This document shows positions 6,008-64,000 of a DNA stretch of 64,000 nucleotides, in pieces. Positions within the stretch are counted from its first letter, which is position 1, and every line of letters begins with the position of its first letter. Both the position numbers and the translations under genes were made by a program. Source of the DNA: Affinirhizobium lemnae (GTDB lineage Bacteria > Pseudomonadota > Alphaproteobacteria > Rhizobiales > Rhizobiaceae); NCBI RefSeq assembly GCF_022968395.1, contig NZ_JALJQZ010000004.1, positions 99,637-163,636 on the forward strand. Reading direction: 5' to 3'. A model generated the notes under the pieces. It was not told the origin of the DNA. It saw only the letters and a list, made by a program, of their open reading frames with translations, and made no database searches.

Positions 6008-6733
6008 CTATTCGACCCCGCCACCCAGATAGGTTGCCATGACACGCGGATCGCTTGCCATGTCGGCCGCCTTGCCTTCGAGAACGAATTCGCCTGTGTC
6101 CATCACATAGGCATAATCCGCAACATCCAGCGCAGCGCGTGCATTCTGCTCGACAAGCAGGATTGAAACGCCTTGGTCGCGTAGTCCACGCACGCGTTTG
6201 AGAACATCGCGCACAATGGTGGGCGCAAGTCCAAGACTTGGCTCGTCGAGCAGGAGCAGGCGTGGCTGGGACATCAGTGCCCGGCCAATCGCCAACATCT
6301 GCCGTTCCCCTCCGGAAAGGGTCTGCGCCAGCTGCGCCTGTCGTTCCGCCAGCCTCGGAAACTGCTCAAAAACGCTTTCTAGGCTGTTCTTGACGTAGGC
6401 CTTGTCGCGGCGACGGACGAACGCACCCAAAAGCAGGTTGTCGAGAACTGGCATGTCACCGAATAGAGCCCTCTGTTCCGGCACCAGGCAAAAGCCTCGT
6501 TCCACTCTGTCTTCAACGGTCATGCGTGACAGGTCTTCTCCTTGATACCTTGCCCGCCCGCTCCAGGGCAGAAGCCCTGCCGCGGCGGAAAGGAGCGTGG
6601 TCTTGCCAGCCCCGTTTGCGCCGATCACGGTGGTAATCTGCCCCTCGCCAAGTGCAAGGTTGACACCACGCACGGCCTCAACCTTGCCATAGGCCACATG
6701 GATGGCTTCCAACGATAACAAAGCGTCGTTCAT
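6008..6733 (-). CDS. ABC transporter ATP-binding protein, LivF type
   Basis: The 241-residue ATPase has Walker A GANGAGKT (residues 38-45), signature LSGGERQ and Walker B LLLLDEPSLGL, in the arrangement of branched-chain amino acid (HAAT) importer LivF subunits. It should bind the cytoplasmic face of the permeases encoded upstream. Its ATG overlaps the stop of the fused permease-ATPase gene (ATGA), indicating translational coupling, and it ends the operon livK-H-MG-F. Liv-type importers carry amino acids but also aromatic acids and amides. The position beside iacR suggests indole-3-acetate or a related acid, which is inference. Confidence 0.92.
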   Translation of the reverse strand: MNDALLSLEAIHVAYGKVEAVRGVNLALGEGQITTVIGANGAGKTTLLSAAAGLLPWSGRARYQGEDLSRMTVEDRVERGFCLVPEQRALFGDMPVLDNLLLGAFVRRRDKAYVKNSLESVFEQFPRLAERQAQLAQTLSGGERQMLAIGRALMSQPRLLLLDEPSLGLAPTIVRDVLKRVRGLRDQGVSILLVEQNARAALDVADYAYVMDTGEFVLEGKAADMASDPRVMATYLGGGVE

Positions 6734-8490
6734 GCGAGACCTCCGAGATAAGCTTCCTGTACAGCCGGGTCCCGGCGGATTGTCGTTGGATCGCCTTCAC
6801 GCAATTTCTGTCCGAAGACCATGACGACGATACGATCCACGAGATTCATGACGAAATCCATGTCGTGTTCGACGATCAGGATGGTCAAACCGTCGTCACG
6901 CAGTTTTCTCAGAAGTGCGGCAAGCGCATCCTTCTCCTTCTTGCGAAGGCCGGCCGCCGGCTCGTCGAGGATCAAGAGGACCGGATCGAGTGCCAGGGCA
7001 CGGGCAATCTCCAGCACCCTTTGCTGACCCAGCGGCAGGTCTCCAGCCAGATCGTGCGCACGCTCGGCAAGACCAACCTGCTCCAGCCGCATGAGTGCTT
7101 CAAGCCGAGCGCGCTCTTCTTCCTCACGGTCGAGCTTGAGGCCGCTTTTGATGTAGCCAGCCTGGGTGCGCAGGTAGGTGCCGCCAACCACATTATCGAG
7201 CAGGGACATGGCGGGGCGCAATTTCACATGCTGGAAGGTGCGTGCGCAACCAAGGGCGGCGATCTGGCGTTGTGACAGGCGTCTGGTGTCCTTGCCAAGA
7301 AAGCGCACAGTGCCGCTGCTGACAGATAGCGTTCCCGTAATCAGGTTGAACATAGTGCTTTTTCCGGCGCCGTTAGGGCCGATCAGACCGACAATCTCGC
7401 CCGCCTTGACGTTGAAACTCACCTTGTTGACAGCGACAAGACCGCCGAAACGTCGCTCCACCGCATCAACCTCCAGCACTGTTTCGCCGGTCGCTGGCAA
7501 CCTCCGCTTTGGCAAAAGGCCCGCCTGGACATCGACCGGACGCGGCATGCGTTTGACCAGTTTGAGAACCAGTGGCATCAGCCCGCTTCGCGCAAAACGC
7601 AGGATGAGGATCAGCATCAGCGCAAAGGCCACCTGCTCCAGTTGGGCAGGATTATCCGTAAGGTGCGGTAGCAGATCCTGAAGCCAGTTCTTGATCAGAA
7701 CGATGAGGCTGGCCCCAACTGTTGCTCCCGCAACTTGAGAGGCGCCTCCAGTCATTGCCATCAGCAGGTATTCGATGGAGATCTTTACCTCAAACGGCGC
7801 CGGGCTGATGAAGCGGGTCATATGGGCATAGAGCCAGCCAGCGAGACCTGCAAGAATCCCTGCTATCACAAACACCCGCAGCCTCGTGCGGAATGTGTCC
7901 ATGCCGATGCTTCCCATGAGATGCGCGCCGCCGCGCAGGAGACGCAGCGCCCTGCCCTCACGCGAGTCGAGCAGGTTCAGGCAAAAGAGCGTCGCCAGAA
8001 GCGTGAAGGTCCATATGAGATAGTACATCGCCGTCTGCGACATGAAGGAGACCGGTCCGAGCGTGATGGGCGGAATGTTCAGCATGCCGCTATGACGGCC
8101 GAGTGGCTCCAGATTGCCGAAGAGATAATAGATCGACAGGCCCCAGGCGATTGTCGACAACGGCAGGAAGTGTCCGCCCAGCCTGAGCGTAATTGCGCCG
8201 ATGGCCAGAGCACTGGCCGCCGTGAGGGCGAGGGCGAACACCAGACCCAGCCATGGCGACCAGCCAAGCGCAGTTGTCAGCCAGCCGGTGGTGTAGGCGG
8301 CGATGCCTACAAAGGCTGCTTGACCGAACGACATCATGCCGCCGATGCCTGTCAGCAGAACAAGGCCCAGGACAACAAGCGAACTAACGCCGACATGGCT
8401 CATGAGGGTGACGAGAAAGGGAGGTGCCACGGCCGGGAGCGCCAGTAGCGCAAGGACCGCGAAAAGGGCGAATGAACGGGCGGGGATCAT
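6730..8490 (-). CDS. Fused LivM permease - LivG ATPase of a HAAT importer
   Basis: The first half (about residues 1-300) is a multi-helix permease of the LivM type. The second half is a LivG-type ATPase with Walker A GPNGAGKS, LPLGQQRVLEIAR as signature region and Walker B LLILDEPAAGL. The fusion gives about 586 residues and forces one permease per one ATPase. The start chosen is ATG 8490 (GAGGAG about 10 nt upstream, one base after the livH stop). A longer frame begins at TTG 8538 inside livH and is less likely. It is coupled to LivF by an ATGA overlap. Confidence 0.9.
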   Translation of the reverse strand: MIPARSFALFAVLALLALPAVAPPFLVTLMSHVGVSSLVVLGLVLLTGIGGMMSFGQAAFVGIAAYTTGWLTTALGWSPWLGLVFALALTAASALAIGAITLRLGGHFLPLSTIAWGLSIYYLFGNLEPLGRHSGMLNIPPITLGPVSFMSQTAMYYLIWTFTLLATLFCLNLLDSREGRALRLLRGGAHLMGSIGMDTFRTRLRVFVIAGILAGLAGWLYAHMTRFISPAPFEVKISIEYLLMAMTGGASQVAGATVGASLIVLIKNWLQDLLPHLTDNPAQLEQVAFALMLILILRFARSGLMPLVLKLVKRMPRPVDVQAGLLPKRRLPATGETVLEVDAVERRFGGLVAVNKVSFNVKAGEIVGLIGPNGAGKSTMFNLITGTLSVSSGTVRFLGKDTRRLSQRQIAALGCARTFQHVKLRPAMSLLDNVVGGTYLRTQAGYIKSGLKLDREEEERARLEALMRLEQVGLAERAHDLAGDLPLGQQRVLEIARALALDPVLLILDEPAAGLRKKEKDALAALLRKLRDDGLTILIVEHDMDFVMNLVDRIVVMVFGQKLREGDPTTIRRDPAVQEAYLGGLA

Positions 8491-8491
8491 C

Positions 8492-9547
8492 TCAGGCAAG
8501 CTCCTCGATTTCTTCGTCGCCGTCTCGATGAACGGCAAATGAGCGCCAGATCAGGACGGGAATGACAACGCTGAAGATGATGATTTCCTTATAGTCACTC
8601 GCAAGAAATGAGGCCCAGCTTTCGAGGATGCCGATGAACACGGAGCCTATGGCCGTGATCGGATAGCTGGCCATGCCGCCGATGATTGCGCCCACGGAAG
8701 CCTTAAGCCCGATCATGAAGCCGGAATCGTAGTACATGGTGGTCACGGGCGCGATCAGAATGCCCACGATTGCCGCAAGTCCGGAGGCGATGAGGTATGC
8801 CGTCGCGGCTGCTCGCTCGGGCCGGATGCCCATGAGCCGTGCTCCGACGCGGTTTGACGCAGTGGCGCGCAGGGCCTTGCCCGTGATGGAGCGGCCAAAG
8901 AACAAATAGAAGACGAAGCTCAGCAGCAGGGCCACAATCATCATCAAGATCTGTTGTGCCGGCACGACGACACCGCCCGGCAGCGTAGTGACGCCGTCGA
9001 GAATGGGGTTCGTGCGCACGCCCTCGGGCCCGAAGACGATAAGGCCGATGCCGGCGATCAGGAAATGAACAGCGATTGCCACGATGAAGAGAATAAGCGT
9101 CGATGATGTGGCAAGGGGCCTTAGCGTCAGGCGGTCTATCAGTACACCCATAGGCAGGATCAAGGCCATCGTCGTAACAATCCGCAGTGCTTCCGGCACA
9201 TCCTGTTTGGCGATCATCAGCCCGACGATGCAGGGTATGAGCGGCAAGACGGCGTAGAAGAAAATGGCATGCGGCAAACGCCGGGCGGTGCCGTTGCGCA
9301 GATGGGTCATGCACTCCGCCAGACAGGCAAGAGCCGCCATGGCCGCTACGAGCCAGATCGAGCCGGGCACGGTACGGCTTTGAAAGGCCGCAAGCGTTAG
9401 CGCTGCAAAGGCAGCAATATCCCCGGAGGGAATGAAGATCACGCGGGTTACCGAGAAAACCAGCACGAAACCCAGCCCGGCAAGCAGGTAAATCGCGCCG
9501 GTCGACAGCCCGTCGATCAGCAAAATCAATATGATGTCCAAAGACAT
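8492..9547 (-). CDS. Branched-chain amino acid-type permease, LivH
   Basis: The 351-residue integral membrane protein starts MSLDIILILLIDGLSTGA, the classical LivH opening, and continues with 8-9 hydrophobic helices, including GMASYPITAIGSVFIGILES near the end. The ATG at 9547 is preceded by GGGAG, whereas the frame can be extended 38 codons upstream only through a Pro/Arg-rich non-membrane stretch. It forms the membrane channel with the fused LivMG protein. It lies 91 bp after the binding-protein gene, with strong hairpins in the gap. Confidence 0.9.
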   Translation of the reverse strand: MSLDIILILLIDGLSTGAIYLLAGLGFVLVFSVTRVIFIPSGDIAAFAALTLAAFQSRTVPGSIWLVAAMAALACLAECMTHLRNGTARRLPHAIFFYAVLPLIPCIVGLMIAKQDVPEALRIVTTMALILPMGVLIDRLTLRPLATSSTLILFIVAIAVHFLIAGIGLIVFGPEGVRTNPILDGVTTLPGGVVVPAQQILMMIVALLLSFVFYLFFGRSITGKALRATASNRVGARLMGIRPERAAATAYLIASGLAAIVGILIAPVTTMYYDSGFMIGLKASVGAIIGGMASYPITAIGSVFIGILESWASFLASDYKEIIIFSVVIPVLIWRSFAVHRDGDEEIEELA

Positions 9548-9574
9548 TTGCGGACTCCCGAACATGGTGCAAGT

Positions 9575-9623
9575 CGGCCTCGGTCGAGGCCGGCGAATGG
9601 CGGCGGATACATGTATCCGCCGC
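9575..9623. promoter_or_regulatory. Two intercistronic palindromes between binding-protein and permease genes
   Basis: CGGCCTCG/CGAGGCCG (9575-9592, 2-nt loop) is followed by a perfect 24-bp palindrome at 9600-9623 whose half is GCGGCGGATACA. On the minus-strand transcript they lie directly after the stop of the substrate-binding protein gene. Such structures commonly protect the upstream message or partly terminate, giving more binding protein than permease. There is no T-run, so full termination is unlikely. Confidence 0.6.
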
Positions 9624-9638
9624 GTCCAGCTCCATGGT

Positions 9639-10877
9639 TCAGGAGATGAGCTGCCAGGCACCTTTCTCGAGTTTTACCAGAACGCGAGAGCGTTCGTCAT
9701 TGCCGTAGCGCGAGCCCGGCTTGAAAGTGTAGACCCCATGCGAGCCGACCACTTCGCTGGCATTGGTGAGAGCCTCGCGCATTGCAAGCTTGAATTCCGC
9801 CGTGCCCGGTGCCGCGGTCTTGATCGCAGTTTCGGCGGCAGTAAGGAATAGGATCCAGGCATCGAACGAGTAGCCGGAAAAGGCATTCGGCACGGCATCT
9901 GGCTGTGTTGCCTTCAGTGCCCTGGCGAATTCCTTTGAGACCGCCTTGGTTGGGTTGGAGTCTGGTAGCTGCTCGAAGACCACGACCGGGCCGGTGGATG
10001 CGATCAGACCTTCCACGGCGCTACCGCCAACCTTGACGAATGCCGGGTTGATGATGGCGGGCGTTCCGTAGAACTGGCCCTTGTAGCCGCGCTCCCGCAA
10101 CGCAAGATAGGGAAGTGCCCCGGGCGTGCCGGAACCGCCAGCGACGAATACGTCCGGACGGGTTGCGAAGACCTTAAGTGCCTGTCCCGTTACGGAGGTA
10201 TCGGCGCGGGCGTATCTTTCGTTCGATGTGACCTTGATCCCAGCGGCTGGCGTCGCTTCTATAAGCGCATTGTAAACGAGGTCGCCCCAAGGGTCGGCAA
10301 AACCCATGTATCCAACCGATTTGACGCCTGCTTGCTTCATGTGGGCTACTGCGCCCGCAATCATCAGTGGCGCAGGCTGCGGTATGGTAATTGTCCAATT
10401 GCCGGGCTCACCCTGGGGATTGGCGTTGGCAATACAGATCAACGGTGTCTTGGTTTCGGCGCATACGGTGGCGATTGCAAGCGCCCCTGGCGAACCTGCC
10501 GTGCCGATGATCACATCGACATTATTTTCCTGAATGAGCTTGCGCGCGTTGACTGCAGCAATGGTCGGATCGGATGCATCGTCCAGCGCGATCAGCTTGA
10601 CTGTCTTGCCAGCAACCTGATTCTTGAAGGCGACAGCTGCCTTCAACCCCTGGTCATAGGGTATGCCGAGCGAAGATACAGGTCCGGACATCGAGGTGAT
10701 GAAGCCAACGACAATGGTGCCGTCTGCGGCGCGGGCCGGTGACACCAAGCCCGTCGGCAAGGTCGACATCGCTGCGGCTGCCGCAAAAGTACTTGCACTG
10801 GTTTTGAGGAACTGCCGGCGGCCGAGATCGCCTGCTGTGCGCGTCAATAGCGAATGGATGGAACCCAGATTTTTCAT
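9639..10877 (-). CDS. Periplasmic substrate-binding protein, LivK type, Tat-exported
   Basis: The 412-residue protein has a twin-arginine motif GRRQFLK (Arg20-Arg21), a hydrophobic stretch and a predicted cleavage after ARA (residue 50). The mature part begins TIVVGFITSMSGPVSSLG, the usual Venus-flytrap opening of periplasmic binding proteins type 1 used by HAAT importers. The ATG has GGGGAG upstream. It is first in livK-H-MG-F and read divergently from iacR, so the shared 445-bp region probably contains both promoters. The ligand is unknown; an auxin-related or other aromatic acid fits the context. Confidence 0.92.
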   Translation of the reverse strand: MKNLGSIHSLLTRTAGDLGRRQFLKTSASTFAAAAAMSTLPTGLVSPARAADGTIVVGFITSMSGPVSSLGIPYDQGLKAAVAFKNQVAGKTVKLIALDDASDPTIAAVNARKLIQENNVDVIIGTAGSPGALAIATVCAETKTPLICIANANPQGEPGNWTITIPQPAPLMIAGAVAHMKQAGVKSVGYMGFADPWGDLVYNALIEATPAAGIKVTSNERYARADTSVTGQALKVFATRPDVFVAGGSGTPGALPYLALRERGYKGQFYGTPAIINPAFVKVGGSAVEGLIASTGPVVVFEQLPDSNPTKAVSKEFARALKATQPDAVPNAFSGYSFDAWILFLTAAETAIKTAAPGTAEFKLAMREALTNASEVVGSHGVYTFKPGSRYGNDERSRVLVKLEKGAWQLIS

Positions 10878-11039
10878 GTCATGCTCCCCTGAGAGTTGAG
10901 TAAGATCTCGTTTGTGAAGATCCAGACGCTGCGGGCATTGTTTCGCCTCATCAGAGCATCCGGCAAAGCTTTGCCGTTGACGGACTTCGCACGCGAAGGC
11001 CGCCTCCCATCATTTTGGCACTATGGCCGCCAAAAAAGA

Positions 11040-11056
11040 AAATTCACGTGAAAATT
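11040..11056. promoter_or_regulatory. Candidate IacR operator (liv/iacR)
   Basis: ATTCACGTGAAAATT lies here with a fully palindromic core TTCACGTGAA (11043-11052). It matches the TTTACGTGAWTRTTACCG motifs before iacH and iacI in its ACGTGA core and following AT-rich half. It lies about 165 bp upstream of the livK-like ATG and 270 bp upstream of iacR. A MarR-type regulator would be expected to bind such a short palindrome; assignment to IacR is inference. Confidence 0.45.
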
Positions 11057-11209
11057 CTACTTTTCGACTTGATGATTTTCAAGCGCCGTTCTGTTGTTCA
11101 CGTCGAATTCTTCTTCGAATTCAGACTTCTCCTTTCATTTTGTCTTATGCGTTCGAATGGATGGGCCATCGGGCCCAGAAGGATTCTGTCTCTGGCGTAA
11201 GAGTTGCGA

Positions 11210-11229
11210 ATAGTGGATTTTTCCACTAT
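11210..11229. promoter_or_regulatory. Inverted repeat upstream of iacR
   Basis: ATAGTGGA (11210-11217) and TCCACTAT (11222-11229) are perfect 8-bp arms with a TTTT loop, extendable by CG pairs with one bulge. Its location about 95 bp before the iacR ATG suits an autoregulatory MarR operator or a leader hairpin. Confidence 0.4.
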
Positions 11230-11322
11230 CGCCTTGAGCGTCGACTTGGCGCGCAAGCAGTTGCTGCTTCGGCGCCGAAGCTTTCCGAGAAGCCCGAAAG
11301 ACCAAACAGGCGCGAGAAACCC

Positions 11323-11805
11323 ATGTCTGAAAACACAGCCTCCAATGCTGCCAACCACACTGGAGTCACCGCAGAAAAACGAATGAAGAAAGATTGGCCG
11401 TTTTATTGGGTCTCTCGGGTGAATGCACGCTATGCACAAGTTCTGGAACGTCGGCTTAAGCCGTTGGATCTCGATGTGGCCCGCTGGCGCGTTCTGATGT
11501 CGCTGTACGAGGACGAACACCTGAGCGTCTCGGAAATCGCCGATTATGCTGTTATCAAGCTCAACACCGTGACGAAGATAGTTCAGCGCATGATTGCCGA
11601 CGGACTTGTTGTCACACGCGTCCGGCCCAATGACGGGCGCGTGACCGAAGTCTGCCTCACCCCTGAAGGGGACCGTCTGCGTCGTCTCGCCCGCAAGGAG
11701 GCCGACCACGTTTTTGCCTCTTCCTTCGTCAACATTACGCCGGACCAGCTGGCGCAACTGAACAGCCTTCTGGAGAACGTATTCCAGCAACTCGAAGGGG
11801 CGTGA
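11323..11805 (+). CDS. iacR: MarR-family regulator, IacR-like
   Basis: This 160-residue winged-helix protein has the MarR layout: LDVARWRVLMSLYE, recognition region LSVSEIADYAVIKLNTVTKIV and wing VTRVRPNDGRVTEV. MarR proteins usually repress catabolic genes until an aromatic acid binds, and IacR of known iac clusters is of this family. The ATG at 11323 is chosen because the family domain begins just after it; a longer frame from 11023 adds a low-complexity, unrelated leader. It converges on iacG with 14 bp between stops and diverges from the Liv-type importer. Likely ligands are indole-3-acetate or a pathway intermediate. Confidence 0.85.
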   Translation: MSENTASNAANHTGVTAEKRMKKDWPFYWVSRVNARYAQVLERRLKPLDLDVARWRVLMSLYEDEHLSVSEIADYAVIKLNTVTKIVQRMIADGLVVTRVRPNDGRVTEVCLTPEGDRLRRLARKEADHVFASSFVNITPDQLAQLNSLLENVFQQLEGA

Positions 11806-11819
11806 GGTTGTATAGGCCA

Positions 11820-12338
11820 TCAATGCGGCTTCAGCGGATGGAAGGCACGGTCAAACCATACGAGGCCGTTGGCTTCCCCTTCAGCAACCTCGGTCGAGAT
11901 CACTTCGCAAAAAAAGACGCTGTGCGTGCCACGAAGCTGCTGATCGACAATGCGGCAGTCGAAGGCAACTGCGGCATTCGCCAGAACCGGTGCACCCGTC
12001 GTCCGCACGTGCCATTCGGTGGTGGCGAAACGATCTTCGCCGGTCCAGCGAGCGAAGGCACGTGAGAGATCTTGATGCGCAGGGCCTAGAACATTAACGC
12101 AGATGGCACCGTTTTGAACGAAGGCATCGTGCGAGAATGCTCTGCTGTTGATGCAGACAAGTAGCGTCGGTGGCTGGTCGGTGACCGAGCACACGGCTGA
12201 GACCGTGAGGCCGTGGCGCCCAGCCGGACCGTCTGTGGTGACGATGTTAACGGCAGCGCCCAGACGGCTCATACCGTTTCGAAACGCCTGCGCTTCAGGA
12301 GTGGGAGGTTGAGGAGCGGTATCTTGGGTCATTGTCAT
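11820..12338 (-). CDS. iacG: Flavin reductase, IacG-like
   Basis: The 172-residue protein is of the HpaC/flavin-reductase-like FMN-binding family (FRNGMSRLGAAVNIVTTDG near the start, then LTVSAVCSVTDQPPTLLVCIN and CVNVLG). It should reduce free flavin with NAD(P)H to feed a two-component monooxygenase, here most likely IacA. The ATG at 12338 overlaps the iacF stop as ATGA, so it is translationally coupled; the frame continues 20 codons upstream but without support. It is the last gene of the iac operon. Homologues in other iac clusters have the same neighbour set. Confidence 0.87.
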   Translation of the reverse strand: MTMTQDTAPQPPTPEAQAFRNGMSRLGAAVNIVTTDGPAGRHGLTVSAVCSVTDQPPTLLVCINSRAFSHDAFVQNGAICVNVLGPAHQDLSRAFARWTGEDRFATTEWHVRTTGAPVLANAAVAFDCRIVDQQLRGTHSVFFCEVISTEVAEGEANGLVWFDRAFHPLKPH

Positions 12339-57166: not shown

Positions 57167-58420
57167 ATGCCTGAAAAGTCAAATTCGAAATCCCTTGTCG
57201 ACCGTAAAGTCCTACCTCTTATAGAGGCAGCTCTCACTGACACCCGTGTAGTATTGATATCTGGGCCACGACAATCGGGCAAGACGACCCTCGCGCGCAT
57301 GTTCTCGGACAGGAATCGACCATATATCACATTGGATGATGCGGGTACTTTAAACGCCGCTAAAGCCGATCCCACAGGGTTTATACGGGGGATTAAGCGA
57401 GCGGTTATCGACGAGGTCCAACGAGCCCCTGATCTGATACTTGCGATCAAGGCAAGCGTGGATGACGATCAGGAGCCGGGGCGGTTTCTGCTCACGGGCT
57501 CCGCCAATCTCGCGACCATTCCGGCGATTGCTGACTCGCTCGCAGGCCGAATGGCAGTCGTTCCGCTTCTTCCCTTCGCGCAGGCCGAAATCCGGTCAAG
57601 TCCCGGCCTCATGCTTGATCGACTTTTCGCAGGGGAGGAGCCCGCGATCGAAGGTGAGGTTGTTCTGGGCAAGGACATGATGAACATGGTTCTGGCTGGC
57701 GGCTATCCTGAAGCCTTGAGGCGAACCACGGCGGCCCGGCGCGTCTCATGGCTGGAAGACTATGTCAGTCTGATTCTGGACCGCGACGTGCGCGACATTG
57801 CCAACATCGATCAGCTCGATCGGTTGCCGCGCCTCCTGAACGTCCTCGCGGAACATGCCGGGCAGCTGATCAACAATAGCAGCTTCGGTTCTGCCTTGGG
57901 ATTATCCGGGGTCACCGCTCAGAAATACATAGCAATCCTGGAGCGGCTATTCCTTATCAAAACTCTTGTGCCATGGTCGAACAACCGGCTCAGCCGACTT
58001 GTCAAGACGCCAAAGCTCCATTTCATCGATACAGGACTTCTGGCGGCATTGCGCGAAGACGAACTCGTCAGGCTATACGATGACAAGACCCGATTTGGCG
58101 CGCTGCTGGAGAGTTTTGTCGTCTCCGAACTGATGAAGCTGGCGTCCTGGTCTGAGAGACGCGTATCTTTTTCGCACTACAGAACGAAGGATCTGGATGA
58201 GGTCGATGTCGTAATTGAAGATCGGCGTGGTCGGATCATCGGTATTGAAGTGAAGGCGTCTGCGACCGTCAAGACCGACGATTTTCGCGGGTTGCGCCAG
58301 CTACAGGCCGCGGTGGGTGATCGATTCATACGTGGACTTGTCTTGCATGATCATGACCGCATCACGCCGTTCGCAGAACGCCTGCAGGCAGCACCGCTAT
58401 CAATCCTTTGGTCGATGTGA
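57167..58420 (+). CDS. AAA ATPase with DUF4143-type C-terminus
   Basis: A 417-residue protein with Walker A GPRQSGKT (33-40), a Walker B-type VIDEVQRAPDLI and RFLLTGSANL, then the DUF4143 region with ALGLSGVTAQKYIAILERLFLI. Near the C-terminus DEVDVVIEDRRGRIIGIEVKAS has the D-x-ExK layout of PD-(D/E)XK nucleases. These proteins are widespread and poorly understood; some may be linked to mobile or defence loci. It stands alone on a repeat-rich boundary, with no toxin or antitoxin partner seen. Confidence 0.85.
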   Translation: MPEKSNSKSLVDRKVLPLIEAALTDTRVVLISGPRQSGKTTLARMFSDRNRPYITLDDAGTLNAAKADPTGFIRGIKRAVIDEVQRAPDLILAIKASVDDDQEPGRFLLTGSANLATIPAIADSLAGRMAVVPLLPFAQAEIRSSPGLMLDRLFAGEEPAIEGEVVLGKDMMNMVLAGGYPEALRRTTAARRVSWLEDYVSLILDRDVRDIANIDQLDRLPRLLNVLAEHAGQLINNSSFGSALGLSGVTAQKYIAILERLFLIKTLVPWSNNRLSRLVKTPKLHFIDTGLLAALREDELVRLYDDKTRFGALLESFVVSELMKLASWSERRVSFSHYRTKDLDEVDVVIEDRRGRIIGIEVKASATVKTDDFRGLRQLQAAVGDRFIRGLVLHDHDRITPFAERLQAAPLSILWSM

Positions 58421-58734: not shown

Positions 58735-59571
58735 TCAACGAAAGGCGCTTGCAATGGCCCGCAAGGTTTCCTTGGACTTTGCATCTGTCAGTGAGGAGTG
58801 CAGCACGATGGATGAAGAGGGAAGGGGCGGTAGACCAAACTTTTCGCCCACATCCTGAAATTCCGGCGGAGCCAGACGTCTCGGGAGCGCCGCTATGCCA
58901 AGCCCCGCAGACACTGCGGCGATGATCGCGCTTACGCCTCCTCCAGAGAAAGCCTCAATCCACGGAATTCCTGCATCGGTCAGGATTTGTGCAGCAAGGT
59001 TGGATACGCTGCAATGTGGACTAAGATTAACGACCCTGATCGGTCGACCTTTTCGATGCTCGTAATGTGCAGAAGCGAACCATCCTACGGGCTCAGGGCA
59101 TAGAAGTGTGCCATCCCGCCTGTCCTCATCGCTGCGGATGATAACGGCATCCAGCGTGCCATCCATGAACGCGTCCAGGAGCAGCCGCGAGCTATCGAGT
59201 CTGACTTCCATCGTGATGGCGGGGTCCAGTTCCTTCAACCGCCCCAAAAGAACCGGAACTTCAGGCCCCATTACATGGCAGGCAATCCCTAATCGGAACT
59301 GCCTTCGATGCACAGCCAGGTTCGACAATGCGCGTTCATGCGCGGCCAGAAAATCCTTGGCCGGTTCGATGAACATTTCACCCTGGGAGGAAAGACGTAC
59401 CATTCTCGGCGTACGCTCAAGAAGACGCTGACCCAATCGATCTTCCAATCGGCGAACCTTGACGCTCAAAGTTCCCTGGCTTGTACCCAAAGCCTCGGCC
59501 GCCCTAGTAAAGCTCTTCAGTTCCGAGATGGTTACAAAGGCCCGAACGGCTTCCACATCCAAAATGCTCAT
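58735..59571 (-). CDS. LysR-family regulator of the biosynthetic-like cluster
   Basis: A 278-residue LysR protein: HTH VEAVRAFVTISELKSFTRAAEALGTSQGTLSVKVRRLEDRLGQRLL and a shortened sensor domain. It is divergent from the MFS exporter gene, with nested inverted repeats in the 165-bp gap, the classical LysR arrangement. It most likely controls the exporter, ACP, KAS III and amidotransferase genes. Confidence 0.9.
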   Translation of the reverse strand: MSILDVEAVRAFVTISELKSFTRAAEALGTSQGTLSVKVRRLEDRLGQRLLERTPRMVRLSSQGEMFIEPAKDFLAAHERALSNLAVHRRQFRLGIACHVMGPEVPVLLGRLKELDPAITMEVRLDSSRLLLDAFMDGTLDAVIIRSDEDRRDGTLLCPEPVGWFASAHYEHRKGRPIRVVNLSPHCSVSNLAAQILTDAGIPWIEAFSGGGVSAIIAAVSAGLGIAALPRRLAPPEFQDVGEKFGLPPLPSSSIVLHSSLTDAKSKETLRAIASAFR

Positions 59572-59598
59572 CGGCTATCTCGATTTGTTGTCACAGTA

Positions 59599-59685
59599 AT
59601 ATACATCCATATCATTTTGTTGCGATGCATACAAATGTATATCGGTAGATATAAATCAGATTAAATTGTATTAATAAAATGATAT
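59599..59685. promoter_or_regulatory. Nested inverted repeats in LysR / MFS promoter
   Basis: ATATACAT/ATGTATAT (59599-59606, 59635-59642) and ATATCATTTT/AAAATGATAT (59609-59618, 59676-59685) are perfect and interleaved in an AT-rich gap. LysR proteins usually bind two or more such dyads in front of a divergent target. Confidence 0.55.
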
Positions 59686-59736
59686 GCGAAATGCATTTAA
59701 TTAATACAAATAGATTTTATAAAATAGGAAGTTAAC

Positions 59737-61251
59737 GTGCCAAATATATCTGCGCGCAATAAAATCGCTCTGGTGGCGGTATGTCTTTCAGCGGTCATGC
59801 TAGGATTGGAAATCACAAGCATTCCATCCATCCTGCCGGTGCTTGAGAAGGTACTGCCCGCGAATTTCAAGCAACTTCAGTGGATTATGAACGCCTACAC
59901 GATCGCGATGTGCTCGGTCCTTGTCGCGATGGGAGCATTGGCTGACCAGTTCGGCCGCAAACGCATGTTCCTGATTGGCATTTTCGTCTTTGGTCTGGCA
60001 TCGCTGCTGTGCGGCATTGCAACAAGCGCGCCTCTCCTGATCGCTGCACGCTTCCTGCAGGGATTGAGTGCGGCGGCGATGCTGGCCTGTCAGGTTGCCA
60101 TCCTTTCGCATCAATTTCAGAATGGACCCGAAAGGGGAGTTGCATTCGCCTGGTGGGGCATAATTTTTGGTCTCGGATTGGGTTTTGGACCCATCATAGG
60201 CGGTGCGCTTGTTGAGCTTACGAGCTGGCACTGGGTCTTCCTGATCCATGTCGCCATTGCCGCTTTGACAATTCTTCTGGCACGTAGCGGTGTTCAGGAA
60301 TCCGTAGATCCGAATGCCGGCAGGATCGATTTCCTGGGCATGGCAACTCTGTCAATCGGCGTTTTCGGGCTGGTTTATCTGATTACGCAAGGACAGGGCA
60401 CTGATCTTCTCAGCAAGCCCAATCTGGTCATCATCGCGATCAGCATTATCATGTTCGCCGTCTTTGCTGTTGTCGAAACAAGGGTTGCCCGCCCCATGTT
60501 CGACTTCCAGGCATTCCGCGTTAGGAATTTTTCTGGCGCTCTGATGGGGGCAAGCGGCATGAATTTCAGCTTTTGGCCCTTTGTCATCTATCTGCCGATC
60601 TATCTGCAGGCGGTCTTGGGCTATGACAGCTTTGCGGCAGGTCTTACGGTGCTTGCCTATACGCTGCCAACGATTATCGTCCCCCCGCTGGCGGAACGAC
60701 TTCTGATGAAGCGCGGCCCAGGATTTGTCATTCCCCTGGGATTGTCTGCAATCGGTATCGGTTTCATCTGCATGCGTCTGGTCATCGGAACCGATCAAGC
60801 CAGCTGGCTATCGCTCCTTCCTGGTTTCCTGTTGGCAGGCATAGGGCTTGGATTGACCAACACACCAGTTACCAACACGGCAAGCGGGTCCATGCCACCA
60901 GAACGCGCCGGCATGGCATCAGGTATGGAGTTCAGCGCCCGTATGATTTCACTTGCTCTTAACATCGCCGTGATGGGGTTCATCCTGGTCAAGGGCGTAT
61001 CCCTCAACCTGCAGGTTTATGTGACCGCCACTGTATCCGCAGACGACTTGACATCCTTGGCCAATGCGCTGGCTGCCGGCAATCTCGCTGCGGTGGAGCC
61101 TTATGGAGTGAACCCTGAGGAAGCCCGCGCTGCACTTGCTGGCGGTTTTGTCTGGGTGCTTACATACGGTGCTTTGGCGCCCCTTCTTCTCGCGGCTATA
61201 TCCCGCATCACCTTCACAAAACATCGCGAAACCTCTGCTGTGCAAAGTTGA
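59737..61251 (+). CDS. MFS drug/metabolite exporter, 14-helix (DHA2) type
   Basis: The 504-residue protein has about 14 hydrophobic segments, motif A GALADQFGRKRMFLIG and motif C-like GLGLGFGPIIGG, as in DHA2 drug-proton antiporters. It is first in a plus-strand run with ACP, KAS III and an amidotransferase, suggesting export of the product and self-resistance. The start is GTG 59737 with AGGAAG upstream. A drug-resistance role without link to the cluster is the alternative. Confidence 0.85.
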   Translation: MPNISARNKIALVAVCLSAVMLGLEITSIPSILPVLEKVLPANFKQLQWIMNAYTIAMCSVLVAMGALADQFGRKRMFLIGIFVFGLASLLCGIATSAPLLIAARFLQGLSAAAMLACQVAILSHQFQNGPERGVAFAWWGIIFGLGLGFGPIIGGALVELTSWHWVFLIHVAIAALTILLARSGVQESVDPNAGRIDFLGMATLSIGVFGLVYLITQGQGTDLLSKPNLVIIAISIIMFAVFAVVETRVARPMFDFQAFRVRNFSGALMGASGMNFSFWPFVIYLPIYLQAVLGYDSFAAGLTVLAYTLPTIIVPPLAERLLMKRGPGFVIPLGLSAIGIGFICMRLVIGTDQASWLSLLPGFLLAGIGLGLTNTPVTNTASGSMPPERAGMASGMEFSARMISLALNIAVMGFILVKGVSLNLQVYVTATVSADDLTSLANALAAGNLAAVEPYGVNPEEARAALAGGFVWVLTYGALAPLLLAAISRITFTKHRETSAVQS

Positions 61252-61291
61252 TCTCGTTGTACGAAGGCATTGAACTGTAAAGGATTTTTAT

Positions 61292-61519
61292 ATGCAAATA
61301 ACCATCGAAACTCTTTCTCCGGCTATGGCAAGAATCCTGGACGTCAGCGCTGACGAAATCAGTGCAACGACACCGCTTTGCGGGAATGAGAAATGGGATT
61401 CTTTCGCTGTGCTGTCCGCTGTCGCATTTGCCATCGAGCATACCGGCCGGCAATTGACGATCAAGGATCTGGCCAACCTTGAGACCGTTGAAGACTTTCT
61501 GAAAATACTTCGTCAGTGA
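61292..61519 (+). CDS. Free-standing acyl carrier protein
   Basis: A 75-residue acidic protein with four-helix ACP features: WDSFAVLS carries the phosphopantetheine serine (Ser37) and LTIKDLANLETVEDFLKIL the last helix. It differs from the housekeeping DSL motif (D-S-F) and therefore looks pathway-specific. It lies 40 bp after the exporter and 15 bp before KAS III. It would carry the acyl intermediate. Confidence 0.88.
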   Translation: MQITIETLSPAMARILDVSADEISATTPLCGNEKWDSFAVLSAVAFAIEHTGRQLTIKDLANLETVEDFLKILRQ

Positions 61520-61534
61520 GCTTCGGCCAGTCAG

Positions 61535-62557
61535 ATGCGTAACCGAAGTATTTCAGGCATTGCCATAAAGGCAATCACCGCTGCACTTCCGACGACAACC
61601 CTGGATACGGACTTCTTCTCCTCACTCTATGGAGAGAAGGAGGTTGCCCGGATTGTTAGGGGCACAGGGATCCGTTCAATTCGTGTTGCACAGCAGATAA
61701 GCACGTCTCAACTCATTGTCGCTGCGGTGAACCACCTCGCTCACAACACTCAACTCGACCTCGGGCAAGTCGATGGCTTGATCGTTGTCACCCAAACCCC
61801 GGACGATTGGAGTCCGGGTGTTGCCTATGCGGTGCATGAAGCATTGGATCTGGCTAAAGACGCGTTTGTCTGTGACATCAATGCGGGCTGTGCGGGCTAT
61901 GTGTGTGGTCTGATACAGGCGGCATCGCTGATCGCATCGGGCGCCTGCGACAAAGTTCTTCTTTGCACCGGCGACCGGAACACACGCCTCACGGCAAATG
62001 AAGATTATCAGGTTCGCATGTTGTTTGGCGATGCGGCGTCGGCCACTCTGATTTGCAAAGGTGAAGACAAACTCGATTTCGTGACCGGCGCTGATGGGAC
62101 CGGACGCAAATTGCTTGGTGTCGACCTGAGTTACGACAAGACCTCTGCTTCGGCAGCCACGGTTGCCTGCCTTAAAATGGATGGCGCGGCCGTCATGGGT
62201 TTCGTGATGAGCAGGGTGCCTGATGCCCTGATGTGCCTTTTGAATTCACTTCACCTTAAGGCGTCAGACATTGATCTTTTTGCCATGCATCAGCCGAACG
62301 AATTTGTCCTGAACTATTTGCGACGAAACATTGGCGTTGATGCCTCTGCGATGCCGATCGATGTTGATGGAGTCGGCAACACCAATTCAACCTCCATTCC
62401 ACTCGTCCTTTGCCGAACAGAGACCGGAACAGGCTTAGGCAAAGCTAACACTATTCTATGCGGCTTCGGGGTTGGGCTGGCATGGAATGCACTTCACCTC
62501 GATCTATCAAAAACAAGATTTATTCAGCCAATAGACGTCGAAGACAAAACATTTTGA
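61535..62557 (+). CDS. 3-oxoacyl-ACP synthase III-like condensing enzyme
   Basis: A 340-residue thiolase-fold enzyme with a Cys-His-Asn triad: Cys119 (NAGCAGYV), His252 (MHQPNEF) and Asn282 (GNTNSTS; FabH has GNTSAAS). The length and triad match KAS III. Divergence of the active-site loops suggests specialised chemistry (acyl transfer or condensation onto an amine or second acyl) rather than fatty acid initiation. It directly follows the ACP gene and precedes the amidotransferase gene by 38 bp. Confidence 0.88.
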   Translation: MRNRSISGIAIKAITAALPTTTLDTDFFSSLYGEKEVARIVRGTGIRSIRVAQQISTSQLIVAAVNHLAHNTQLDLGQVDGLIVVTQTPDDWSPGVAYAVHEALDLAKDAFVCDINAGCAGYVCGLIQAASLIASGACDKVLLCTGDRNTRLTANEDYQVRMLFGDAASATLICKGEDKLDFVTGADGTGRKLLGVDLSYDKTSASAATVACLKMDGAAVMGFVMSRVPDALMCLLNSLHLKASDIDLFAMHQPNEFVLNYLRRNIGVDASAMPIDVDGVGNTNSTSIPLVLCRTETGTGLGKANTILCGFGVGLAWNALHLDLSKTRFIQPIDVEDKTF

Positions 62558-62595
62558 GAATTTCTTAAAAACCGGATTTATCAATAGGATATTCA

Positions 62596-64000
62596 ATGTG
62601 TGGGATTGCAGGCTGGATTGACTTTAGCGGTCATTCTGCGGATCATCCGCGAATTCTCAAGGCTATGACAGATTCTATTTATCGCCGAGGCCCGGACGGA
62701 GAAGGCGCCTGGTCCGACTCCATCGCAGCGATAGGCCACAGACGCTTGGCGATCATTGATATCGAGCACGGCGCGCAACCGATGCAGTCGGTTGATGCGG
62801 ATGGCTGTCGTGCTGTCATTTCCTTCTGTGGCGAAATATTCAATTGGCAGGAACTCCGGGCTGAGCTGCAAACGTTCGGCTATCATTTCGAAACCAACAG
62901 CGACACCGAAGTCATCCTGAAAGGTTTCCTCCATTGGGGGCAAGATGTCGTTGAGCATCTCAACGGCATGTTTGCGATTGCAATATGGGAGCCCCGGCGC
63001 CAGACGTTGCTCCTTCTGCGGGACAGGCTGGGCGTAAAGCCTCTGTTCTATTATCCGACCAGCACAGGCGTCGTTTTCGGATCAGAACCAAAAGCACTAT
63101 TCCAGCATCCCCTGGTCAGTCCACGCGTGTCGCGAAACGGGCTGTGCGAAATTCTCGACATGACGAAGACGCCGGAAATGACGCCTTACGTCGGAATGTT
63201 CGAATTGCGGCCGGGCGGTCGGGCAGTCTTCGACCGCAACGGCTTCCGGAAAGACATTTATTGGCAGTTACAGGCCACGCATCACACGGACGATCTCGAG
63301 AGGACAATCGATACCGTAAGAAGTCTGCTCTCGGATACCGTACGGCGCCAACTCGTTTCAGACGTGCCTATCTGTACCCTTTTGTCAGGCGGCCTCGATT
63401 CGTCTGCGGTGACGGCACTGGCCGCCAATGTGCTTGGCAGGCAGCAACTAGCCTCCTTCTCCGTGGACTTTCGCCACAATCTTTCAAATTTCAGCGCTGA
63501 TGGTGTGCGTGGAGCGGCAGATGCTCCATTCGCCCGCGAACTGGCCACCCATGCCGCAACACGGCATACGGAATTGCTGCTCGATAGTGATGAGATGCTC
63601 GATGAGACCGTGCGGCGAAACGTGCTCCACGCTGTTGACGCGCCTCCCGCCTATTGGGGGGACATGTGGCCATCTCTCTATCTGCTGTTCAGAGAGCTTT
63701 CCAAGCATTCCGTGGTGGCCCTTTCTGGCGAGGCGGCGGATGAAGTCTTTGGTGGATATCAATGGTTCCGTAATCCGGCTGCCATTCACGGAAAGACATT
63801 TCCATGGCTGACTGCCGGCTCTTCTCGCTATTTTGGCGGCGTGCAACTGCTCTCCCAGGACCTGCTCAATACGCTCGATCGTGACACCTACCGTGCAGAA
63901 CGCTTTCAGGAGGCTCTGAGTGAGGTCCCTGTCCTCGAAGGCGAGTCGGATGTCGATCGCTCGATGCGCAGGGTTTCTTATCTTGCGCTGACACGGTTTC
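62596..64000 (+). CDS. Class II glutamine amidotransferase / asparagine synthetase-like (5' part)
   Basis: The open frame from ATG 62596 (AGGAT upstream) continues to the window end without a stop, about 468 codons. Cys2 starts the glutaminase domain (MCGIAGWIDF), with RRGPDGEG, HRRLAIID and SDTEVILKGF. The synthetase domain has the ATP PP-loop LLSGGLDSSAV near residue 263 and SGEAADEVFGGYQWF. In biosynthetic clusters such proteins amidate a carboxylate or form lactams. GEIYN is changed to GEIFN and YNGE to FCGE. The C-terminus is beyond the window. Confidence 0.85.
   Translation, partial: MCGIAGWIDFSGHSADHPRILKAMTDSIYRRGPDGEGAWSDSIAAIGHRRLAIIDIEHGAQPMQSVDADGCRAVISFCGEIFNWQELRAELQTFGYHFETNSDTEVILKGFLHWGQDVVEHLNGMFAIAIWEPRRQTLLLLRDRLGVKPLFYYPTSTGVVFGSEPKALFQHPLVSPRVSRNGLCEILDMTKTPEMTPYVGMFELRPGGRAVFDRNGFRKDIYWQLQATHHTDDLERTIDTVRSLLSDTVRRQLVSDVPICTLLSGGLDSSAVTALAANVLGRQQLASFSVDFRHNLSNFSADGVRGAADAPFARELATHAATRHTELLLDSDEMLDETVRRNVLHAVDAPPAYWGDMWPSLYLLFRELSKHSVVALSGEAADEVFGGYQWFRNPAAIHGKTFPWLTAGSSRYFGGVQLLSQDLLNTLDRDTYRAERFQEALSEVPVLEGESDVDRSMRRVSYLALTRF

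What the first reader, a model, noticed from the sequence alone, without database searches (positions are those of the whole stretch)
58735..64000. Possible undescribed small biosynthetic cluster: exporter, ACP, KAS III, amidotransferase
LysR, 14-helix MFS exporter, single ACP with a non-housekeeping D-S-F site, KAS III with an altered Asn loop (GNTNSTS) and an asparagine-synthetase-like enzyme are compactly arranged (40, 15 and 38 bp gaps). The MFS-to-amidotransferase genes are on one strand, with AT-rich control sequences. Seen directly: order, motifs, spacing. Known: AsnB-type enzymes amidate acids or close lactams in natural-product pathways. Inferred: an acyl-ACP is condensed by KAS III and amidated. 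The right end of the cluster is outside this window.
Basis: partly seen in the sequence, partly recalled or inferred. Interest (0 to 1): 0.75.

Follow-up and report, generated by a model that had tools for sequence, protein, structure and literature searches.

The report
Gram-negative butenolide cluster with dedicated amidotransferase
The genes seen at the window's edge are the start of a larger, rarely found gene cluster that probably makes and exports a small butenolide-type molecule carrying an amide group, a chemistry best known from Streptomyces signals and antibiotics.

Summary
In detail: LysR, 14-helix MFS, ACP, KAS III and an AsnB-type gene lie as described. The window cuts the cluster; the contig continues with an AfsA-type hotdog protein, an OYE flavoenzyme, two SDRs, a second ACP-like protein, a PPTase and a reductase. 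The block MFS-ACP-KASIII-AsnB-AfsA-OYE-SDR-SDR-ACP2 recurs in the same order in 3 of 8 loci found (Glaciimonas, Photobacterium, Pseudoalteromonas). Three others keep the AfsA core, both ACPs and KAS III but have an AMP-ligase and no AsnB. In the window's genus the AfsA is in 1 of 57 genomes, its own, so the cluster was probably acquired. AsnB is cluster-specific in the genomes searched and nearer to trichostatin hydroxyamidotransferase than to E. coli AsnB. Best reading: KAS III and two ACPs make a beta-ketoacyl thioester, AfsA condenses it to a butenolide, and AsnB adds an amide, perhaps on an ACP-bound dicarboxylic starter. The product and the amidated acid are unproved. New variant of a known kind.

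The parts
58735..59571 (-). LysR-family regulator, divergent
   Evidence: PF03466 4.4e-21, PF00126 1.6e-18; divergent and 45-46% identical in 2 of 3 sister clusters
59572..59736 (.). AT-rich LysR/MFS intergenic region, 26% GC
59737..61251 (+). DHA2-type MFS exporter, 504 aa
   Evidence: TIGR00711 233.7 bits, cut-off 230.2; 14 hydrophobic peaks; 66-70% identical in 3 of 3 sister clusters
61292..61519 (+). ACP1, 75 aa, WDSFA site
   Evidence: PF00550 E 0.0032, 18.1 bits, below cut-off 20.8; 41-45% identical in 3 of 3 sister clusters
61535..62557 (+). KAS III, Cys-His-Asn kept
   Evidence: PF08541, PF08545; alignment of 7; nearest solved sequence 4efi, E 5.7e-41
62596..64000 (+). AsnB-type amidotransferase, 613 aa, cut by the window's end (whole at L002 4596-6437; L002 position = window position - 58000). 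The rest of the cluster lies outside the window, all on +: AfsA-type hotdog protein L002 6447-7529; OYE flavoenzyme ~7526-8659; SDR1 8656-9426; SDR2 9450-10205; ACP2-like 10249-10566; PPTase ~10668-11411; F420_oxidored-family reductase 11353-12033
   Evidence: AsnB: PF00733, PF13537; nearest solved sequence 7ylz hydroxyamidotransferase, E 7.3e-168; MCGI start, SGGLDS and SGEAADE present in 4 of 4. Outside: frames; PF03756 2e-13, PF00724 3.5e-39, PF13561 7.5e-54, PF00106 2.2e-13, PF01648 2.9e-15; PF03807 9.5e-14; ACP2 has no Pfam match and is named from its LDSLS site and from 46-57% identical proteins at the same place in 3 of 3 sister clusters

Best explanation
A probably horizontally acquired cluster for a small exported butenolide- or butyrolactone-type metabolite with an amide. 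Shown: the gene content, its order, and its recurrence in three other genera. Inferred: the PPTase primes two ACPs; KAS III builds a beta-ketoacyl-ACP; the AfsA-type enzyme condenses it with dihydroxyacetone phosphate (or a similar hydroxyketone), which releases the chain as a phosphorylated butenolide; the OYE enzyme and the SDRs reduce ring and side chain; the AsnB-type enzyme converts a carboxylate to an amide with glutamine and ATP; the MFS pump exports the product; LysR controls the operon. For the amide I favour the distal carboxylate of a dicarboxylic starter (for example malonyl to malonamyl) on ACP1, because AfsA release leaves no free acid and no thioesterase was seen among the cluster's frames. 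The AsnB-less sister clusters have an AMP-ligase beside ACP1 and KAS III instead, as if starter modules were exchanged. That sub-step I hold at about 0.4; the AfsA-condensation core at about 0.7.
For: Downstream genes and families. Same block in same order in L007, L008, L009. In the 15 loci compared (all chosen by their AfsA), OYE and SDR1 go with AfsA in 15 of 15, SDR2 in 13 of 15 (window). Trees: the four AsnB clusters form one group for AfsA (98/99), OYE (100/99) and SDR1 (100/99), joined to the AMP-ligase clusters (100/100, 100/99, 100/100). HEH.PG and E.ARQ invariant in 15 of 15 AfsA rows. Hotdog-like core. AsnB at 68-70% identity only in the three sister-cluster genomes among the 12 AfsA-bearing genomes searched, and none at E<=1e-80 in 56 genus relatives; nearest solved relative 7ylz, named TsnB9 in PMC13284220. 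Chemistry from papers: an AfsA-like PKS domain condenses 3-ketothioesters with DHAP, and an AsnB homologue with an ACP is hypothesised to make malonamyl starters (PMC7756379, passages).
Against: No product is known to me for any of these clusters. The AfsA is far from characterised ones: NF041195 scores 47.8 bits against a cut-off of 200 and matches only profile positions 197-274 of 290. No phosphatase gene was seen in the cluster. AsnB passes NCBI's asparagine synthase model TIGR01536 (481.5 against 267.1), so sequence alone does not exclude asparagine synthesis. TsnB9-like SaHAT and SoaC act on free acids (passages), which speaks for late amidation. The whole-protein AfsA model is poor (mean pLDDT 59.6). 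ACP2 has no Pfam match. AMP-ligase and AsnB sit at different places in the two layouts, so 'swap' is only an analogy.
Confidence: 0.6

Rival explanations
1. Late amidation: the core makes an acid (for example a furan-3-carboxylic acid as in methylenomycin furans, or an opened lactone) and AsnB turns it into a primary amide at the end, as SoaC does with a free acid.
For: AsnB is closest among solved sequences to 7ylz, the trichostatin hydroxyamidotransferase; its kin SaHAT used benzoic acid and not benzoyl-CoA (PMC13418202 passages); SoaC amidates free sorbic acid (PMC13284220 passages). AfsA enzymes also lead to furan carboxylic acids (PMC7756379 passages).
Against: asnB sits between KAS III and afsA, not with the reductases, in 4 of 4 clusters; no thioesterase or hydrolase gene was seen among the frames of the block.
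Confidence: 0.3
2. The AsnB is an asparagine synthetase, or supplies an amide unrelated to the product, and merely sits in the operon.
For: TIGR01536 asparagine synthase score 481.5 against cut-off 267.1.
Against: Same neighbour genes in 4 of 4 clusters; no match at E<=1e-80 in 56 other genomes of the genus; the genome has two other AsnB-like genes of 35-39% identity; 166 bits to E. coli AsnB against 563 to 7ylz.
Confidence: 0.06
3. A methylenomycin-like route: ACP, KAS III and a butenolide synthase use a pentulose rather than DHAP and the product is a cyclopentanone.
For: There MmyA, MmyC and MmyD are proposed to assemble acetoacetyl-MmyA and condense it with a pentulose, MmyE resembles flavin-dependent enoylreductases and Mmr is a putative efflux pump (PMC12593393, Introduction and first part of Results).
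Against: MmyD is described there as AvrD-like, while this protein matched AfsA PF03756 and no other Pfam family. No direct comparison with MmyD or AvrD was made, and no MmyO or MmyF homologue was looked for.
Confidence: 0.1
4. The AfsA-like protein is not a butenolide synthase but another hotdog enzyme (dehydratase, thioesterase or cyclase) in a small type II polyketide route.
For: Foldseek's nearest folds are PaaI-type and acyl-ACP thioesterases and FabZ; similarity to the curated GBL synthase model is weak.
Against: PF03756 above its gathering score (51 against 24) and an E.ARQ motif kept in 15 of 15, which I recall as the catalytic region of ScbA.
Confidence: 0.15

Closest known systems
AfsA/ScbA-type gamma-butyrolactone and butenolide biosynthesis (Streptomyces)
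   Same: AfsA-family hotdog enzyme; beta-ketoacyl thioester logic; reductases (the last from recall)
   Different: Here KAS III, two ACPs, AsnB and an exporter are in the cluster; Pfam sees one AfsA domain; a PilZ-like C-terminal domain follows; below the cut-off of NF041195
Gladiostatin / glutarimide clusters (gds, smd, chx, ltm, mgs)
   Same: AsnB homologue with ACP, and in gds an AfsA-like domain for DHAP-dependent chain release (PMC7756379 passages)
   Different: No modular PKS or acyltransferase gene seen here; discrete KAS III; separate AfsA protein
Methylenomycin cluster (mmy)
   Same: ACP, KAS III, butenolide synthase, flavoenzyme, efflux pump (PMC12593393)
   Different: MmyD is described as AvrD-like; no amidotransferase in the parts that I read; Streptomyces
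Ruegeria pomeroyi DSS-3 GBL killing cluster
   Same: AfsA-domain protein with LysR regulators and an MFS transporter nearby in a Gram-negative; required for killing and suggested to be horizontally acquired (PMC7426152 passages)
   Different: No ACP, KAS III, AsnB or OYE among the genes listed around it (that gene table may be incomplete); its AfsA aligns to ours only around the E.ARQ motif
Trichostatin hydroxyamidotransferase TsnB9 (7ylz) and SoaC
   Same: AsnB-fold enzyme acting on a natural-product carboxylate
   Different: Acceptor unknown here; no glutamine-oxidising partner was looked for; neighbours are ACP, KAS III and AfsA

Membership tests
AfsA-type butenolide/GBL synthase | PF03756 above gathering score | tested here: met
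   51 bits against 24
AfsA-type butenolide/GBL synthase | Match to the curated ScbA/BarX equivalog model | tested here: not met
   47.8 bits against cut-off 200; so not filed as a ScbA/BarX orthologue
AfsA-type butenolide/GBL synthase | Hotdog fold with conserved E..R motif | tested here: met
   Foldseek hits to PaaI and FabZ, E from 3.7e-5, on a model of mean pLDDT 59.6; E149 and R152 invariant in 15 of 15. That these are catalytic residues is recalled
AfsA-type butenolide/GBL synthase | Condensation of a beta-ketoacyl thioester with DHAP | not testable with these tools
   needs enzymology
Natural-product AsnB-type amidotransferase | Glutaminase Cys2 and PP-loop intact | tested here: met
   MCGI and SGGLDS in 4 of 4
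Natural-product AsnB-type amidotransferase | Cluster-bound, distinct from other AsnB copies of the genome | tested here: met
Natural-product AsnB-type amidotransferase | Acts on a carboxylic acid other than aspartate | not testable with these tools
   needs enzymology; TIGR01536 asparagine synthase is also passed
Glutarimide malonamyl starter cassette | Acyltransferase + ACP + AsnB together | tested here: not met
   ACP and AsnB present; no acyltransferase family among the block's proteins scanned; works-like only
Methylenomycin-type cluster | AvrD-like MmyD | tested here: inconclusive
   Only PF03756 was reported for the AfsA protein at E<=0.001; no direct comparison with MmyD or AvrD was made
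PilZ c-di-GMP receptor | PilZ fold | tested here: met
   C-terminal domain model mean pLDDT 78.9; the first 37 Foldseek rows are, by title or recall, PilZ proteins or complexes holding one (12 say PilZ in the title), probability 0.87-1.00, but E 0.0016 or weaker; no Pfam match
PilZ c-di-GMP receptor | RxxxR and [D/N]xSxxG motifs | tested here: not met
   [DN]xSxxG in 0 of 9 rows; RxxxR at no shared place. Motifs recalled

The most novel reading that the evidence does not exclude
A Gram-negative family of diffusible butenolide amides (signals or antibiotics) made by a conserved AfsA-OYE-SDR core fed by exchangeable starter modules: ACP1-KASIII-AsnB in one branch (malonamyl-type starter), AMP-ligase-ACP1-KASIII in another, and a LuxI/LuxR-linked branch in Pseudomonas in which two lactone chemistries sit side by side. 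The AfsA enzyme carries a degenerate PilZ-like domain.
Probability: 0.35. Interest if true: 0.75.

Novelty: new variant of a known kind. Interest (0 to 1): 0.55.

Why it matters
AfsA chemistry underlies Streptomyces hormones and takes part in some antibiotics; in a Gram-negative it is tied genetically to killing (R. pomeroyi, PMC7426152 passages), but the passages that I saw name no molecule. A compact, conserved cluster of about 11 kb with its own acyl supply, amidotransferase, PPTase and exporter is small enough to clone and express, so the product of a Gram-negative AfsA pathway becomes directly testable. It also offers a test of whether AsnB enzymes amidate an ACP-bound starter, which PMC7756379 describes as hypothesised.

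Tried and rejected
Housekeeping asnB: rejected. Plasmid-borne relatives: none by near-identity DNA search for the in-window block or by tblastn for AfsA at E<=1e-3. Left flank: only the right flank (GntR onward) is conserved, over nearly the full query in 5 of 56 other genus genomes, so the right boundary lies between L002 12033 and 12280; the left one is not mapped. 'KAS III is unusual': rejected. PilZ domain as a c-di-GMP sensor: motifs absent. Solved AfsA homologue by sequence: none convincing. Pfam gave nothing above its cut-offs for ACP2, the isolated PilZ-like domain or the 207-aa partner protein of the Pseudomonas clusters. Literature: ten searches listed no title that I recognise as being on this AsnB-AfsA-KASIII cluster; two lists were capped (15 of 28, 15 of 163), and the library holds only open-licence PMC papers.
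Full report
What is there. The window ends inside the AsnB gene. The window lies at G000:C53:99637-163636, and the contig runs on for about 16 kb. The AsnB frame is whole (613 aa), and after a gap of nine bases an AfsA-type gene starts, followed on the same strand by an OYE-family flavoenzyme, a FabG-like SDR, a second SDR, a small ACP-like protein with an LDSLS site, a phosphopantetheinyl transferase and a Rossmann reductase of the F420_oxidored family. In L002 coordinates (window position minus 58000) these are 6447-7529, about 7526-8659, 8656-9426, 9450-10205, 10249-10566, about 10668-11411 and 11353-12033. Then come a GntR gene on the other strand and a separate run of genes (alpha/beta hydrolase, flavin reductase, luciferase-like monooxygenase, aldehyde dehydrogenase, solute-binding protein).

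Boundaries and origin. That right-hand run matches at 71% over nearly the whole query in 5 of the 56 other genomes of the genus. In the six stretches that I fetched to its left, blastn similarity begins within the GntR gene and nothing of the cluster is matched. One of the six was only 1.9 kb long, so its left side was hardly seen. The AfsA profile finds 1 of 57 genomes of the genus (E<=1e-6) and 1 of 247 of the family (E<=1e-8), in both cases the window's own. With the single protein it was found in 2 of 297 of the order (own and one MAG) and 1 of 398 of the phylum sample (own). These samples overlap. The cluster is 53.4% GC against 57.9% for window 1-58734 and 59.4% to its right. I infer horizontal acquisition. 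The left boundary is not mapped.

Relatives. Three (Glaciimonas MAG, Photobacterium lutimaris, Pseudoalteromonas sp.) carry MFS-ACP1-KASIII-AsnB-AfsA-OYE-SDR1-SDR2-ACP2 and the F420_oxidored-family gene in the window's order, at 41-76% identity. The LysR gene is divergent in 2 of these 3 and not found in the Glaciimonas locus; the PPTase is found in 2 of 3 (34-35% identical) and not in Photobacterium. Three (Pseudomonas fluorescens HKI0874, Pseudomonas sp. H1h, Oceanospirillum maris) carry AfsA-OYE-SDR1-SDR2-ACP2-AMPligase-ACP1-KASIII and a further small protein, with no AsnB, MFS or PPTase match of this cluster in the locus (AMP-binding tested by Pfam on one of the three). Two more (Methylosinus and the Hyphomicrobiales MAG) have AfsA-OYE-SDR1-SDR2; the MAG goes on with a Flavodoxin_2 protein and a homologue of that further small protein. 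Their contigs start 612 and 919 bases before AfsA, so upstream genes are unknown.

Third layout. In the genus of the HKI0874 genome, 6 of 298 genomes have an AfsA of this kind at E<=1e-15, that genome included; a second copy was seen in the H1h genome. I fetched the five others and this second copy (6 loci). OYE and SDR1 go with AfsA in 6 of 6, SDR2 in 4 of 6, and a Flavodoxin_2-like protein lies upstream in 4 of 6. A LuxI-type autoinducer synthase was confirmed by Pfam in 3 of 3 loci tested (L045, L046, L048), and LuxR in 2 of 3 frames tested (L045, L048; the L046 frame that I gave had no match). The other three loci were judged only from the first residues printed. A sample of 369 genomes in the class of the Photobacterium genome held the AfsA only in that genome (E<=1e-15).

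Evolution. Trees of AfsA, OYE and SDR1 (15 rows each) put the four AsnB clusters together (98/99, 100/99, 100/99) and these with the AMP-ligase clusters (100/100, 100/99, 100/100). The AMP-ligase group itself has 91/92 for AfsA and 75/77 for OYE and is not one group for SDR1. The program warned of long branches: L014 and L011 in all three trees, L013 in two, and the window's own row in the OYE tree. The core genes seem to have travelled together.

AsnB. It matches asparagine synthase models and passes NCBI's cut-off for that name. Its nearest solved relative is 7ylz, hydroxyamidotransferase, 562.9 bits over residues 1-604, against 166.4 bits for E. coli AsnB. MCGI, SGGLDS and SGEAADE are kept in 4 of 4. 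Among the 12 AfsA-bearing genomes searched, enzymes at 68-70% identity are in the three sister-cluster genomes only, inside the cluster; of the other nine, eight have 31-39% matches and one has none at E<=1e-20. The window's genome has two other AsnB-like genes (35% and, in two pieces, 37-39%) and one short match to the glutaminase part alone.

AfsA protein. PF03756 covers residues 118-225; HEH.PG and E149, A151, R152, Q153 are invariant in 15 of 15. The AlphaFold model from 9 sequences is poor at the N-terminus (mean pLDDT 59.6), but Foldseek's best rows are PaaI, acyl-ACP thioesterases and FabZ, with a PilZ protein (YcgR) among the first three. The last 116 residues, modelled apart from 7 sequences (mean pLDDT 78.9), resemble PilZ domains: the first 37 Foldseek rows are, by title or by my recall of the entries, PilZ proteins or complexes that hold one (12 name PilZ in the title), at E 0.0016 or weaker and none under 0.001. 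In the Hyphomicrobiales MAG a separate 108-aa frame sits at this place. The c-di-GMP signature motifs are not kept.

How it probably works. From PMC7756379 (passages): AfsA condenses a beta-keto thioester with DHAP, and in gladiostatin an AfsA-like domain was shown to do so, releasing the chain; an ACP and an AsnB homologue are hypothesised to make the malonamyl starter. By analogy, ACP1, KAS III and ACP2 would supply the beta-ketoacyl thioester, AfsA would release it as a phosphorylated butenolide, and the OYE and SDR enzymes would reduce it. AfsA release leaves no free carboxylate, and no thioesterase gene was seen, so a distal carboxylate on a dicarboxylic starter is the simplest AsnB substrate. 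Against this, the TsnB9-like SaHAT used a free acid (PMC13418202 passages), as does SoaC (PMC13284220 passages), so late amidation is a strong rival. Nothing here was tested at the bench.

What is known. Methylenomycin has a similar ACP/KAS III/butenolide synthase/pump logic (PMC12593393: abstract, Introduction, first part of Results), but MmyD is described as AvrD-like. R. pomeroyi DSS-3 kills competitors through a cluster with an AfsA gene (PMC7426152, passages). The genes listed around that AfsA include no ACP, KAS III, AsnB or OYE, and its AfsA aligns with ours only locally (15 residues by BLASTP, 88 columns by profile). AfsA genes with other partners have been noted in Chromobacterium subtsugae and in a Pseudomonas (PMC12114271 and PMC8719888, passages). 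I saw no paper on the AsnB-bearing cluster in the lists of ten searches; the library is partial and two lists were capped.

Verdict. A genuine, conserved and, as far as these searches go, undescribed biosynthetic cluster; a new variant of AfsA-type butenolide clusters. The product is unknown. Interest 0.55.

Noticed in passing
L045-L050 (six Pseudomonas loci): AfsA-OYE-SDR genes lie beside LuxI and LuxR genes (LuxI confirmed in the 3 loci tested, LuxR in 2), so acyl-homoserine lactone signalling may control, or share precursors with, an AfsA-type product.
   Followed up: partly
L002 7179-7526 (outside the window) and kin: The AfsA protein ends in a PilZ-like beta domain without c-di-GMP motifs; in the Hyphomicrobiales MAG (L006 1756-2082) a separate 108-aa frame stands at this place.
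   Followed up: partly
L010 17000-17623, L011 16772-17353, L012 17014-17637, L014 5399-5974: A protein of about 190-207 aa without a convincing Pfam match (L010 and the MAG frame tested) accompanies AfsA clusters that have no AsnB gene in the stretch seen.
   Followed up: partly
window 57167-58420: AAA_14/DUF4143 ATPase gene just left of the cluster, a kind that I recall from variable regions.
   Followed up: no
G948 (Pseudomonas sp. H1h genome): Two different AfsA clusters in one genome: the AMP-ligase type (L012) and the LuxI-linked type (L045).
   Followed up: partly
L002 about 10600-10655 (outside the window): Ahead of the PPTase frame a GGAG stretch precedes an ATG that is out of frame with it and opens only a short frame; the true PPTase start is unclear.
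   Followed up: no
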